From the NCBI GenBank assembly GCA_031272775.1, contig JAISTB010000038.1:1-61960 (forward strand): DNA of 61,960 nucleotides, read 5' to 3'. The notes beneath the pieces are model-generated. The model did not search any database and was not told the origin of the DNA. It saw only the letters and a list, made by a program, of their open reading frames with translations. Shown here piece after piece: positions 12,782 through 36,100 of this stretch. This DNA comes from Fusobacteriaceae bacterium (GTDB taxonomy: Bacteria; Fusobacteriota; Fusobacteriia; Fusobacteriales; Fusobacteriaceae). A program made the position numbers and the translations under genes. Each line of letters starts with the position of its first letter. The stretch's first letter is position 1.

Positions 12782-12858
12782 TGGCGCGCCCGGCAGGACT
12801 CGAACCCGCAACCCCTTGATCCGAAGTCAAGTGCTCTATCCAATTGAACTACAGACGC
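12782..12858 (-). tRNA. tRNA-Arg (TCG)
   Basis: A 77-nt minus-strand tRNA including encoded CCA. The anticodon stem CTTGA/TCAAG encloses CTTCGGA, giving TCG. The D loop has GGA with A20. It reads CGA and, by wobble, CGG codons. Confidence 0.93.
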
Positions 12859-12941: not shown

Positions 12942-14168
12942 TCAGGATTTCATTTGTGAGGTTTCGGTCCCGTTCAGGTGTTCGGCCATACTGATGGCGA
13001 TTTGTTTCAGCTTCGCGATGTCCTCTTCCTTGGGGGAACCGTGAGCTTCGACCGGAGGCGCGACCAGGGTCAGTCCCGGCAGGCTGTCCACAAATTCCTG
13101 AATGGCGCGAACGCCGCCCCCCGACCACATCATGCTGCCGAAGATGCCGACGAAGCGATTCTTCAGGCCGTAATTCTTCAGCTTGTGCAGGATCGGCACG
13201 AGCTTTGGGTATGCGGTCGTGTTGTGGGCGCAGGAACCCAGGATCAAGCCCTGATATTTCCAGATCCGGCTCACGATATCGGTCGAGTCCACTTTGGACG
13301 AGTCATAAATCCGGATATCGGTAATGCCCGATTCCCGCAGTTGAGTCCCGATGACTTCCGCCATCTGGGCCGTATTGCCGTACATGCTGCCGTAGACGAT
13401 GACGACGCCCTTCGTCTCGGGCTCGAATTTCGCCCATTTTTCATATATCCGCACGATCCCCGGCACGTCCCGCCGCCACAGAATCCCGTGGGCGGGGCAG
13501 ATCATTTTGATGTCGAGGGCGCCGAGCTTTTTGATGGCCATGACGACTTGAGCGCCGTATTTGCCGACGATGTTTGAATAATATTTGCGCATCTCGCTCT
13601 TGTAAAACGTGAGGTCCACCTCATCGTCAAATATACCCCCGGAAAGGGCCCCGAAGCCGCCGAAGGCGTCGTTGGAAAAGAGAATCCCCGACGTCTTGTC
13701 GTAGGTGACCATGGATTCGGGCCAATGAACCATGGGGATCATGGCAAACGTCAGCTTGTGCTTGCCGAGGTCGATTTCGTCCCCTTCCTTGATCGTGATG
13801 AAATTTTCCTCGGGGAAGTTGTGGGCGAGCGCCTTCAGCATCGGGAGACTCTTGGCGTTTCCGATGATCTTCATGTCCGGGTAATAGCGGACGAGTTCCT
13901 TGAGTCCCGACGAATGGTCGGGCTCCACGTGATTCACCACGAAATAATCGGGCTTCCGGCCGCCCAAAGCCTCATGGAGCTTGTCCATGAACGTGATTGC
14001 CGTATTGATTTCCACCGCGTCGATGACGCAGATTTTCTCGTCTCTGATAATATAGGAATTGTAACTGACGCCGTTAGGTATCGGGATATAATTTTCAAAG
14101 CGTTCCTTCTGAAAATCATTGACGCCGATCCACGAAATATCGTCGCATATTTTAACCGATCGAAACAT
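12942..14168 (-). CDS. fprA: Flavodiiron protein (A-type flavoprotein)
   Basis: FprA-type flavodiiron proteins reduce oxygen to water or nitric oxide to nitrous oxide and protect anaerobes. The 408-residue protein has an N-terminal metallo-beta-lactamase-like diiron domain with HVEPDHS, MVHWPES, SNDAFG and PAHG ligands. It ends with a flavodoxin domain starting at VVIVYGSMYGNTAQMA (FMN loop). The frame is open to 14231, but ATG 14168 has AAGGAGG and lies downstream of a strong promoter whose boxes span 14203-14231. The flavodoxin-ferredoxin proteins at 6556 and 7395 are possible electron donors, but nothing in the sequence proves it. Confidence 0.96.
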   Translation of the reverse strand: MFRSVKICDDISWIGVNDFQKERFENYIPIPNGVSYNSYIIRDEKICVIDAVEINTAITFMDKLHEALGGRKPDYFVVNHVEPDHSSGLKELVRYYPDMKIIGNAKSLPMLKALAHNFPEENFITIKEGDEIDLGKHKLTFAMIPMVHWPESMVTYDKTSGILFSNDAFGGFGALSGGIFDDEVDLTFYKSEMRKYYSNIVGKYGAQVVMAIKKLGALDIKMICPAHGILWRRDVPGIVRIYEKWAKFEPETKGVVIVYGSMYGNTAQMAEVIGTQLRESGITDIRIYDSSKVDSTDIVSRIWKYQGLILGSCAHNTTAYPKLVPILHKLKNYGLKNRFVGIFGSMMWSGGGVRAIQEFVDSLPGLTLVAPPVEAHGSPKEEDIAKLKQIAISMAEHLNGTETSQMKS

Positions 14169-14202: not shown

Positions 14203-14231
14203 ATTATAGATGATTTTCCGAAAACTTGCAA
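14203..14231 (-). promoter_or_regulatory. fprA promoter
   Basis: On the minus strand TTGCAA (14226-14231) and TATAAT (14203-14208) are 17 bases apart. This shows that fprA does not depend on the RNA transcribed upstream of it. Confidence 0.85.
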
Positions 14232-14321: not shown

Positions 14322-14559
14322 AAAGAAAAACCCGGGGTAGCTAATCCCGGGTTTTACCCGCAATCTCAATGAGTAGCTAATTCATTTCCGATTGCTTAAA
14401 GGTTTTTTCCTTCAGTCAAGTAGCCAACTCTATCTGTCCGAAAAACCCTTTGTCATTTCCCGGCCTCCGGAGCCACCATCGGTCAGGAAATTATAATTTG
14501 TCTTGCGAGGAGCCACCTGCAAGAAAAATTCCGTTGCTTAGCAATATCACTATTGCTAC
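14322..14559 (-). ncRNA. Multi-hairpin small RNA with repeated URGCU loops
   Basis: The region has its own promoter (14566-14594) and ends in a strong terminator hairpin, giving an RNA of about 238 nt. A first stem pairs TAGCAAT with ATTGCTA (14539-14558). Five more hairpins follow, each ending in a five-base loop: UGGCU (plus positions 14511-14515, 14471-14475 and 14422-14426) and UAGCU (14375-14379 and 14339-14343). Outer stems include CTTGC/GCAAG, ATTTCC/GGAAAT, a long AAGG-T-rich stem and GCAATC/GATTGC. There is no ORF of note. I see none of the hallmark sequences of tmRNA, RNase P RNA, SRP RNA or 6S RNA. The function is unknown. Confidence 0.7.
14326..14355 (-). terminator. Terminator of the multi-hairpin RNA
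   Basis: CCCGGG (14331-14336) pairs with CCCGGG (14346-14351), extended by an A/T stem, and on the minus strand TTTTTCTTTT follows. The loop carries the same UAGCU core as the hairpins before it. Confidence 0.85.
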
Positions 14560-14565
14560 AATTCA

Positions 14566-14594
14566 TTTATAGCACATATTTTCCCGTTTGTAAA
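14566..14594 (-). promoter_or_regulatory. Promoter of the multi-hairpin RNA
   Basis: On the minus strand TTTACA (14589-14594) and TATAAA (14566-14571) are 17 bases apart, placing the start near 14559. Confidence 0.75.
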
Positions 14595-14696
14595 GTGTTT
14601 TTTCAAAAAAAAATTTATTGACGTTTTTATAAGCAGTGCAAAATCTACCTTGTGACAATAAATACTCTTGTTGGTTATTCATTATTGGGAGGGTCA

Positions 14697-15365
14697 ATGT
14701 ACAGCAAAATCCTGCTCTTGTGGATCTATTGTCTCGCCTTTACGGGGGGCATGGTCAATACGGTCTGCGTCGCGTATTTCGCGACGACAGTCTCGCATTT
14801 TACCGGCGTCGTTTCCCGCTTCGCCACTCATGTGGCGGCGCTTCGCTTCCGGGACATGGGGAGCGCCCTGGCGCTGATGGGGGCTTTTCTCCTGGGGGGC
14901 GCCGTCTCGGGCTTTATCGTCCACGAGCGGGAATTCAACCTCAAGAAGCGCTACGGCATTATCCTGCTCTTTACCGGAGCGGCCCTTGCCCTGGCAAACG
15001 CCCTGACGGCCGGCCGCGTCTATCCCTTTATGCTGTTTCTCGCGTTCCTGATGGGCCTTCAGAACGGGTTGCTCCTCCGCTACAACGGCGTCGTCGTCCG
15101 CACGACCCACATGTCGGGCAATCTGACGGATTTGGGCGTCTACCTCGGCTATTTCCTGAGGGACCCCGCGAACCGGAACCATCTCGAAAAAGCCTTGATT
15201 TCCCTGTTCTGCATTCTGTTTTTTGCGGGAGGCGGCGTCTTCGGCATGCTGCTGTATCCTGTCCTCGGGCGGCGTTTTTTCTATGTGACAGCGCTCTTTT
15301 ACTGGCTGATCGCGGCTTTTTATTTCCGGATCCGTCATCTCCGGCTCCGCGGCTACATATTTTAG
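14697..15365 (+). CDS. DUF1275 (YoaK-type) membrane protein
   Basis: A 222-residue inner-membrane protein of the DUF1275/YoaK family, with about six hydrophobic segments. Family-like motifs are GGMVNTVCVAYF near the N-terminus and MGLQNGLLLRYNG with THMSGNLTDLG in the middle. The biochemical role of the family is not established. The frame is open to 14652, but the ATG at 14697 follows GGGAGGG at the right distance. It diverges from the multi-hairpin RNA, and its own promoter is not clear. Confidence 0.8.
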   Translation: MYSKILLLWIYCLAFTGGMVNTVCVAYFATTVSHFTGVVSRFATHVAALRFRDMGSALALMGAFLLGGAVSGFIVHEREFNLKKRYGIILLFTGAALALANALTAGRVYPFMLFLAFLMGLQNGLLLRYNGVVVRTTHMSGNLTDLGVYLGYFLRDPANRNHLEKALISLFCILFFAGGGVFGMLLYPVLGRRFFYVTALFYWLIAAFYFRIRHLRLRGYIF

Positions 15366-15454: not shown

Positions 15455-15541
15455 GCCTAGGTGGTGAAATTGGTAGACGCACGGGACTCAAAATCCCGCG
15501 GTAGCAATACCATGGGGGTTCGAGTCCCCCCCCAGGCACCA
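15455..15541 (+). tRNA. tRNA-Leu (CAA)
   Basis: A class II tRNA of 87 nt with encoded CCA. The anticodon stem CGGGA/TCCCG encloses CTCAAAA, giving CAA for TTG codons. The acceptor stem has one A-C mismatch at the fifth pair. Confidence 0.93.
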
Positions 15542-33100: not shown

Positions 33101-36100
33101 CGCAGTCTCAGAATCTTGCCGCCGGAGAGCGATCCGTTTTCGGTGTAGACGCCCACTGCCTTATCCCCGGCCGTAAGGATCAGATTGCCGTAAGTATCAA
33201 TCGCCGCGTCTTTGGCATAGATACCTATCCCTCCCGCGCCTGTTGCTTGACCCGTTGTAATACGATTTGTATTGATTATGTCCGTTCCCCGGGAAATGAT
33301 GCCGTAAAAACCGTCAGACGTCCCGGTAATCGCGCCGTTGTTTGTCACCGTGCCGCCGCCTTCCGCGTAAAGGCCCGAGACGGCCCCGCTCATGCCCGAA
33401 GGCGTGATGATTTCGAGGTTTGTATCGTTTGTCATATTTTCCCCGGGCGCGCCCTGCCATACCAGCGCCGTGGCCGAGCCGGAAACCGCTCCCTGATAGT
33501 TCATCCGAAGCGTTCCGGGACTCAGCGTTCCCGTTCCCTTCAGAAGAATCCCGATTCCGTTTTCTTCGGTCACGAGTTCATAAGCCTGGCTGCCGCCCAG
33601 AATCACGTCGCTGTTTTCCCCGTAGACGCCGATGCCGTCTTTCCCGGCGCGGATTTCGGCCTTTCCGTTATTGGTAAGCAGGATGACGCCGCCGTCGTCC
33701 GTCCCTTTGACAAAAATGCCCGCGCCTTTTTCGCCGACGGCAATGCGCCCGCTGTTCTCAACCCGGACCCGGGTTTTGGATCCCGCGGGACCTGTGTTGT
33801 TGTCGGCGTAAAGTCCGACGCCGCCTTGACCGGCCACCGTAATGCTTCCGTTATTGTGCAGGCTGATCAGATCCGTCGTCAGATCCCCGGCGTCGGTGCC
33901 GTACATCTCGGGCAAATCCGGCGTTCCCGCGGCCGTCACTTTCCGGGACATACCGGCCATGCCGATCCCGGTCCCGTTGACGACGATGGCGCCGTCGTTT
34001 TTCAATCGGCTGCCGTTGGCGCCCGCCGCCGCGATGGAACCGTCCACGATAATGTCGCCGCCGTTGAGAATGTGGCCGTAGCTCACGAAAAGCCCTATGG
34101 CGTTGCCGCCGGAGACGTTGACGCGCCCCCGGTTGTCAAAGCCGCTTTCGGCGTTCTTTCCGCCGACATTGGCGCTGTCGTTGGATCCCATGGAGAGCCC
34201 GAGACCCGTCTTCGATTCCACCGTGATTCCCGCTTCGATCGTCACCCGCTCTCTTTCCATGGTGATGTCGTTGAAGGGATCGCCGCCCTTGACCGTCCCC
34301 TGCGAATACGCGTCCAGGTCGACGTCCTTGCCGATATCGAGCGTTCCTCCCTCGAGATAACTGTAATACCATTTTCCGTTGGGATTGATGTTCCGTACCT
34401 GCGGCACTTGCTCGATCTGGTCGAGGTAATGCTGCTCGGCCGTTTTGCCGCCGCCCGTCGTCACGTCCCGCCAATCAATGGCCAGATCCCGGAACACGCC
34501 GAGGTTGACGCCGTGCTCCATGAGGATCACGTCCACATTGCCCATCCCATTGTAGCGCGCCCCGGATCCCAGAGCGGCGGCATAATCGGTCTTGTCTCCG
34601 TAAAAGGCGACGCCGTGATACAGTTGCAGCGTCGTGGAACCCGTAAAATTGATATTCGATTGCCTGTCGGCAAAAAAGGCCAGTTCCCCGGCGTGATCGC
34701 CAGGCTGATTTTCCCGGTGAATGATGGTTCCGCCGCCGAAGTCTATGCTCCCGCCGTTCAGCGCGTCAAGGGCCCCGTTTGTGCCCGTGCGGATCTCGTT
34801 GGCCGCGCCGTTCAGGAAGATTTTCGCTCCGAGGCCGTTGGCAAAGGCCCCGATGCCGTTTACGATCATATTGCCGGCAACGCTTACTTCTCCGCCCGCC
34901 CCGGCGAAAGCGCCGATATTGCTGAATTTATCGGAAAGTTGAGCGACAATGCCGTCTTCGGCCGCGATGTTCCCCGTGATTTCCACGAGGCCGCCGCTCC
35001 GGGCGTAGGCGACGATGGAATTCCTCCCCCAGGCTGTCGTATCAGCCGTGACCGTAATTTTGCCGTCGTTCTCGGCAAACCAGGCGATACCGTTTTTGCT
35101 GACCATATCGAGGTCCTGGGCCACTTTGATCTCCGTGGGGGAACCGTTGGGAACGCCCTTCAAGCCCGTTCCCGTATCGGTCCAGGTCCCTTCGGCGTAA
35201 GCCACAATGGTATTCTCCCCGGTTTGGGCCTCGGGCGTGGCGCTTCCCTGCGCCCCGTCGCTGAAACGCTGCTGGATTTTGTTTTGGATATCGACAACGG
35301 TCCCGTTTTTCACGAGAAACATGAAGCCGTTGCGGGATTTTTCCCCGAACGTGATCTTGAAGCGATCAAAAATCAAGTCGTGAACGGGATCCCGGTCATA
35401 AAAGGAGTAGTTTGACAGGGAAGCCCTGCTGACGCCGATCCTTTGGCCCGATACGGCGTAGACGCCGACGCTGCCGTCCGTGAGACCCGCCGTGTATCCC
35501 GGTTCGTTCAAATCCCCCCGGACCGGATCGGGCGCGCCTGTTCCGATTTCAAAAAACAGCTCAAAATAACCCTGGTGAACACCCACATCCCAGCTCCGGC
35601 CCGGCAATTTTTCGCTGAAAAAGATCCCGACGTTCTCGTCGCCGTTCAGCCGCATGGGTTTCGCGGGATCCAGCTTCACATAGGGAATATAGGCCTCCAG
35701 GATCCCTTCTCCGTCGTTGCCGCCCTTGGCGTAGTCTTTGAACTGGGAGGCGATGTATTTGGATTTGTCGGGGACCCAGGTCAGGAAGGAAAAGCCGATG
35801 TTGGACGCGCCGTCCAGAACGATGGAGCCGGTGTTTTCGAGACGCAAGCCCCCCGCGAAATTCCTTACCGCAAAGACGCTGTTGCCCCGGGTCTGCACAT
35901 TGATGTCGGCGCTTCCGGCAAATTTCGTTGAAAACTGCCCGCCGTTGTAGCCGCCCGCGTCCTGGCCGGGATCGCTCCCCTTCAAATGAAAAATCGTGTT
36001 TTGGTCGTCCCGCACAAGGATCGCGACGTTCTGCATGGTCGTCTGGCCCCCGCGGAAGGATTCGGCGTTGATAAAGGCCGCCTTGCCGTAGAGGTTGGCC

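What the first reader, a model, noticed from the sequence alone, without database searches (positions are those of the whole stretch)
14322..14594. Independent small RNA with five hairpins sharing a URGCU pentaloop
Between fprA and a DUF1275 gene the minus strand has a complete promoter, about 238 nt with no ORF, and a strong terminator; fprA then has its own promoter. Five successive hairpins all end in the loop UGGCU (three) or UAGCU (two), although their stems differ in sequence. Repeated loops on unrelated stems suggest selection for the loops. They may be multivalent sites for an RNA-binding protein, or kissing loops, since UAGCUA is self-complementary and pairs with UGGCUA. I cannot match it to any known RNA class.
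Basis: partly seen in the sequence, partly recalled or inferred. Interest (0 to 1): 0.75.

Follow-up and report, generated by a model that had tools for sequence, protein, structure and literature searches.

The report
Small RNA with repeated matching loops
This is a real, previously unnamed small RNA of an unnamed Fusobacteriaceae genus whose five hairpins carry the same short loop words, and a second long RNA in the same genomes carries the pairing (complementary) word in its own hairpin loops, so the two RNAs may grip each other loop to loop.

Summary
The finding is real. Window 14559-14322 (minus) encodes a free-standing structured RNA ('RNA1') with its own sigma70 promoter and terminator. 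Clear homologues exist in the two other genomes held for its genus and in none of the other Fusobacteriales genomes searched (96 in all). Across the three, 20 of 77 base pairs change on both sides, while loop words stay fixed: UGGC(U/A) in hairpins 2-4 and AGCUA in hairpins 5-6. Rfam has no match. RNA1 is not a leader of fprA, because the gene beyond the terminator is a convergent thioesterase in the other two genomes.

New here: a covariance model of RNA1 picked out, as best non-self hit in all three genomes, a second undescribed RNA ('RNA2', about 490-780 nt). It has a conserved promoter and 5' motif, and ends in two hairpins whose loops contain invariant AGCCA, the exact complement of UGGCU. 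These loops pair with UGGCU better than nearly all of 2,759 intergenic hairpin loops; UAGCUA is self-complementary.

Best explanation: RNA1 is a multivalent loop-loop (kissing) regulator whose partners are RNA2 and itself. A shared RNA-binding protein or mRNA antisense pairing are live rivals. CsrA, Hfq and ProQ are absent. No expression data exist.

The parts
14566..14594 (-). Promoter of RNA1: TTTACA (14594-14589), 17-nt spacer, TATAAA (14571-14566)
   Evidence: Sequence; conserved in G001 and G002
14322..14559 (-). RNA1, about 238 nt, six hairpins, no conserved ORF
   Evidence: Folding z -4.3; homologues; covariation
14539..14558 (-). Hairpin 1, no shared loop word; not formed in the predicted fold of the G002 homologue
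14495..14530 (-). Hairpin 2, loop UGGCU (14515-14511); GGUGGCUCCU invariant in three genomes
14455..14491 (-). Hairpin 3, loop UGGCU (14475-14471); UGGCA in G002; five pairs change on both sides
14398..14451 (-). Hairpin 4, long stem, loop UGGCU (14426-14422); UGGCA in G001
14360..14395 (-). Hairpin 5, 9-nt loop AUUAGCUAC (UAGCUA 14379-14374); AAUGAAUUAGCUACUC invariant
14323..14359 (-). Hairpin 6 = intrinsic terminator, 9-nt loop AUUAGCUAC (UAGCUA 14343-14338), then U-rich tail; CAGCUAA in G001
14203..14231 (-). Separate promoter-like site for fprA (TTGCAA-17-TATAAT)
12942..14168 (-). Neighbour: fprA-like flavodiiron protein (ODP beta-lactamase + flavodoxin); not next to RNA1 in the other two genomes
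14652..15365 (+). Neighbour: DUF1275 gene, divergent, next to RNA1 in all three genomes

Best explanation
RNA1 is a free-standing, trans-acting small RNA of one Fusobacteriaceae genus. Its hairpins are scaffolds that present short loop words for loop-loop (kissing) pairing. The UGGC(U/A) loops of hairpins 2-4 pair with the AGCCA loops of the two 3' hairpins of a second RNA, RNA2 (G000:C35, about 33105-33600 +). The UAGCUA loops of hairpins 5-6 pair with each other, within one molecule or between two. Because RNA2's 3' module resembles RNA1's own hairpins 5-6, RNA2 probably competes for, or titrates, hairpins 2-4, so one RNA acts as sponge or antagonist of the other. Shown: the two loci, structure, conservation, complementarity and restriction to the genus among the genomes searched. 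Inferred: that both are transcribed, that the loops pair in the cell, and which RNA regulates which. My confidence that RNA1 is a genuine functional structured RNA is about 0.95; the figure below is for the kissing mechanism.
For: Homologues and covarying stems with fixed loops. RNA2 is the best non-self match of the RNA1 model in all three genomes (E 1.9e-4, 0.002, 0.03); conversely the RNA2 3' model's best non-self match is RNA1 hairpins 5-6 in G002 (3.4e-4) and G000 (0.0046). RNA2 is a conserved unit: promoter, 5' motif AUACUAGAUAAGCAGGGAA exact in all three and only there, and two 3' hairpins with 5 of 14 pairs changed on both sides and AGCCA invariant. AGCCA occurs 3, 4 and 2 times in RNA2 (0.46, 0.65 and 0.09 expected from shuffles) and never in RNA1; among RNA1's conserved loops UGGC(U/A) is confined to hairpins 2-4. 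Pairing energy with UGGCU: only 1 and 20 of 2,759 other intergenic loops do as well as RNA2's two loops; hairpin 5/6 self-pairing is matched by 2 of 2,759. In G001 hairpin 6 changed to CAGCUAA yet keeps a 6-bp match to UUAGCU of hairpin 5. The loops are predicted unpaired (0.96-1.00) in the G000 RNA1 fold, as are the two RNA2 3' loops when RNA2 is cut at its terminator.
Against: Only three genomes, no transcript data. RNA2 was found by likeness to hairpin 6, so its complementarity to hairpins 2-4 is not fully independent. RGCY is palindromic in type, so the same loops also fit one same-sense motif, YRGC(H), that a protein could read. Kissing would be only 4-6 bp. UGGCA in G001 hairpin 4 and G002 hairpin 3 shortens the match to UGGC:GCCA. 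In hairpins 2, 4 and 5 stem bases beside the loop are also invariant, which loop-only pairing does not require.
Confidence: 0.45

Rival explanations
1. Protein sponge or scaffold: RNA1 (and RNA2) bind several copies of an RNA-binding protein that reads a YRGC(H) hairpin loop, as CsrB-type RNAs do for CsrA.
For: All conserved loops of both RNAs share RGC in register, shown by the covariance alignment; repeated loops on different stems are the CsrB/RsmZ layout (from general knowledge).
Against: CsrA, Hfq and ProQ/FinO families absent from all three genomes. Intergenic hairpins genome-wide are not clearly enriched for the loop words: UGGCU 6 against 4.0 expected, AGCCA 3 against 4.0, so no obvious mRNA regulon. 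The split (UGGC in RNA1, AGCCA in RNA2) is not expected of one shared motif.
Confidence: 0.27
2. Classical trans antisense sRNA with redundant seeds: the loops plus flanking bases pair with ribosome-binding sites of mRNAs, like LhrC.
For: Conservation reaches beyond the loop in hairpins 2, 4 and 5. GGUGGCUCC is complementary to an SD-like GGAG. Hairpin 5 has 11 nt complementary to the start codon of cstA (AAUGAGUAGCU) in G000, and the pairing is largely kept in G001 and, with two G-U pairs, in G002.
Against: About 0.4 such 11-nt matches at start codons are expected by chance (my estimate), and the cstA start is conserved as coding sequence. A scan of 1,858 predicted start regions gave no outstanding target family; cstA itself was missed there because a false reverse-strand ORF displaced it.
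Confidence: 0.2
3. 5' leader or attenuator of fprA.
For: fprA lies downstream on the same strand in the window.
Against: In G001 and G002 the gene beyond the terminator is a 4HBT thioesterase on the opposite strand; fprA has its own promoter-like site.
Confidence: 0.02
4. Chance hairpins or a decayed repeat, no function.
For: Multi-loop sharing in one genome is not rare.
Against: Conserved promoter, loops and terminator with 20 double-changed pairs in three genomes.
Confidence: 0.03

Closest known systems
LhrC sRNAs of Listeria (PMC4132741)
   Same: One sRNA carries several redundant short motifs, in hairpin loops including the terminator loop, each able to bind the target.
   Different: LhrC motifs are CU-rich (UCCC), number three, and target an mRNA ribosome-binding site; RNA1 has five URGCU loops and its best candidate partner is another ncRNA.
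CsrB/RsmZ protein-sponge RNAs
   Same: Many hairpins with one repeated loop word on different stems (general knowledge).
   Different: The loop word there is GGA for CsrA (abstracts); RNA1's loop words are URGCU and the genomes have no CsrA.
sRNA sponges such as OmrB-RydC (PMC12692685)
   Same: One small RNA captures another by base pairing.
   Different: The passages read do not describe repeated short loop-loop contacts; the partner here is a long ncRNA with a 3' two-hairpin module.
Kissing antisense RNAs (RNAI/RNAII, FinP, OxyS-fhlA; from general knowledge)
   Same: Contact starts between complementary hairpin loops.
   Different: Those are cis-antisense pairs, or one or two longer loops; here five short repeated loops face two, at unlinked loci.
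FoxI and FoxJ of Fusobacterium nucleatum (PMC11005410)
   Same: Free-standing sRNAs of Fusobacteriaceae without Hfq or ProQ.
   Different: They use a cytosine stretch as seed; no homologue of RNA1 was found in other genera of the order.

Membership tests
Known Rfam family | Score above a family's gathering threshold | tested here: not met
   Only tRNAs in the window; best sub-threshold match BSnc120 18.6 bits against cut-off 114
Trans-encoded bacterial sRNA | Own promoter, intrinsic terminator, no ORF, independent of neighbours | tested here: met
   neighbours differ
Trans-encoded bacterial sRNA | Expressed as a discrete transcript | not testable with these tools
   No RNA-seq for these MAGs
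CsrB/RsmZ-type CsrA sponge | Repeated GGA loops | tested here: not met
   Repeated loops are URGCU
CsrB/RsmZ-type CsrA sponge | CsrA encoded in the genome | tested here: not met
Kissing-loop RNA pair | Complementary unpaired hairpin loops on both RNAs, conserved | tested here: met
Kissing-loop RNA pair | Compensatory change between the two loops across species | tested here: inconclusive
   The cores UGGC and GCCA do not vary among three genomes, so no covariation can be seen
Kissing-loop RNA pair | Demonstrated binding dependent on loop complementarity | not testable with these tools
   Needs gel shift or in vivo ligation
LhrC-type redundant-seed sRNA | Loops complementary to a conserved mRNA ribosome-binding site | tested here: inconclusive
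   cstA lead only, near chance expectation

The most novel reading that the evidence does not exclude
RNA1 and RNA2 form a dedicated multivalent RNA-RNA network: five short sticky loops on one RNA, two on the other, with self-complementary UAGCUA loops allowing RNA1 multimers, so that the pair works as a protein-independent RNA sponge or assembly in a genus lacking CsrA, Hfq and ProQ.
Probability: 0.15. Interest if true: 0.82.

Novelty: new variant of a known kind. Interest (0 to 1): 0.58.

Why it matters
The three genomes lack CsrA, Hfq and ProQ, and how small RNAs of Fusobacteriota find partners is open. A pair of unlinked ncRNAs, each with conserved loops bearing complementary words, would be a compact natural example of multivalent loop-loop regulation, testable in vitro with two short transcripts. 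Neither RNA1 nor RNA2 is in Rfam, so at the least two new RNA families of an uncultured genus are defined here, with covariance models for RNA1's 3' half and RNA2's 3' module.

Tried and rejected
Rfam, gathering and permissive thresholds: nothing (RNA2 loci). Wider distribution: R1 over 96 Fusobacteriales genomes, a hairpin 2-3 pattern, the RNA2 5' motif with 3 mismatches and the R2 model confine convincing hits to three genomes; matches in other genera are weak, and those I read look like ordinary terminators. A pattern hit in Mesobacillus harenae is taken as chance: the covariance model does not score that place (only 0.92 elsewhere in the locus). Genome-wide regulon of the loop hairpins in G000 (read from fetched stretches): no clear enrichment (one search missed true hairpins because the stems beside the loop are short and a spurious ORF covered RNA2). 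T-box resemblance of GGGUGGCACC in G002: dropped, since hairpins 5-6 do not carry UGGN and no T-box match was reported for the window. mRNA targets: repeated CCGGAGCCACC in C37 lies antisense to a repeat-protein gene; cstA kept only as a weak lead. Pairing of the RNA2 5' motif with another G000 locus: only matches with 3-4 mismatches or more, none at a striking place.

Full report
What is there. The minus strand of window 14594-14322 carries a TTTACA-17-TATAAA promoter, about 238 nt without a conserved ORF, and an intrinsic terminator. The RNA folds far better than shuffles (z -4.3). It contains six hairpins; the last five end in UGGCU, UGGCU, UGGCU, AUUAGCUAC and AUUAGCUAC. Rfam gives no match.

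Conservation. A DNA search of 61 relatives found strong homologues only in the two other same-genus genomes: G001 (E 4e-46) and G002 (4e-13). A genome contigs pattern search, with matching contig lengths, names them Fusobacteriaceae MAGs Md513_bin107 (JAISST01) and Pq454_bin26 (JAITPM01). The isolate prefixes suggest termite hosts, but I did not verify this. Promoter, loops and terminator are retained. The three folds have the same layout from hairpin 2 onward. With the RNAalifold consensus, 89.5% of cells pair and 20 of 77 pairs change on both sides (shuffle mean 8.0, 0 of 500 as high; sliding the partner by 1-3 columns gives 2-6). Loop words: UGGCU in hairpin 2 always; UGGCU/UGGCU/UGGCA (G000/G001/G002) in hairpin 3; UGGCU/UGGCA/UGGCU in hairpin 4; AAUGAAUUAGCUACUC invariant in hairpin 5; UAGCUA/CAGCUA/UAGCUA in hairpin 6. 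A covariance model of hairpins 4-6 over 96 Fusobacteriales genomes finds RNA1 nowhere else.

Not a leader. The divergent DUF1275 gene is shared by all three genomes. The gene past the terminator is fprA in G000 but a 4HBT thioesterase on the opposite strand in G001 and G002.

A second RNA. The same model's best non-self match in every one of the three genomes is one intergenic locus (E 1.9e-4 G001, 0.002 G000, 0.03 G002). Reading these loci shows a second RNA, RNA2: promoter, a 5' hairpin, the motif AUACUAGAUAAGCAGGGAA identical in the three genomes and exact in no other of 96, a variable A/G-rich body, and two 3' hairpins of which the second is the terminator (alignments). Transcript direction is inferred from promoter-like and terminator-like sequence at conserved ends. 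Its neighbours differ in each genome. The 3' stems covary (5 of 14 pairs changed on both sides), whereas AGCCA stays fixed in both loops. A model of this module has RNA1 hairpins 5-6 as its best non-self match in G002 and G000, in register.

Do the loops match by chance? AGCCA is over-represented in RNA2 and absent from RNA1. Among 2,759 other intergenic hairpin loops of G000, 1 and 20 pair with UGGCU as well as the RNA2 loops do; 2 pair with AUUAGCUAC as well as it pairs with itself. The loops are predicted accessible in G000. Two cautions: RNA2 was reached through likeness to hairpin 6, itself nearly complementary to hairpins 2-4; and the palindromic type RGCY means a shared same-sense motif YRGC(H) describes the same data. 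The split of UGGC to RNA1 and AGCCA to RNA2 tilts me towards pairing.

Mechanism. I commit to loop-loop pairing at 0.45: RNA1 presents UGGC(U) to RNA2's AGCCA, while UAGCUA loops join hairpins 5 and 6 or two RNA1 molecules. A protein sponge stands at 0.27; CsrA, Hfq and ProQ are absent and no loop regulon is visible. Antisense regulation of mRNAs stands at 0.2, with cstA as one lead: AAUGAGUAGCU over its start codon pairs with hairpin 5 in G000, nearly as well in G001, and with two G-U pairs in G002; about 0.4 such matches are expected by chance.

Place among known things. It works most like LhrC (redundant loop motifs) combined with sRNA-on-sRNA sponging, but belongs to neither by sequence. 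It fails CsrB membership (wrong loop word, no CsrA). It is a new RNA family; if kissing is shown, a new variant of sRNA sponge pairs.

Noticed in passing
G000:C35 about 33105-33600 (+) (L046:1083-1578); L045 about 2280-1504 (-); L047 about 1985-1500 (-): RNA2: an undescribed long ncRNA with conserved 5' motif AUACUAGAUAAGCAGGGAA, variable A/G-rich body and a 3' module of two AGCCA-loop hairpins; no Rfam match.
   Followed up: partly
G000:C37:55317 (cstA start); L227, L228: cstA-like gene: 11 nt over the start codon are complementary to RNA1 hairpin 5 in G000, nearly kept in G001, and kept with two G-U pairs in G002; may be chance.
   Followed up: partly
G000:C37 about 90115-92160: Repeat-protein gene followed by a stretch with the same repeat outside the predicted ORFs (reverse-strand word CCGGAGCCACC three times in all), perhaps a decayed copy.
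   Followed up: no
L045:1650-1760: RNA2 of G001 has short tandem repeats (GAAACAUGAAAAA type) in its body and is about 270 nt longer than in G000.
   Followed up: no
window 12785-12858 (-), 15455-15538 (+): tRNA genes flank the fprA-RNA1-DUF1275 region on both sides.
   Followed up: no
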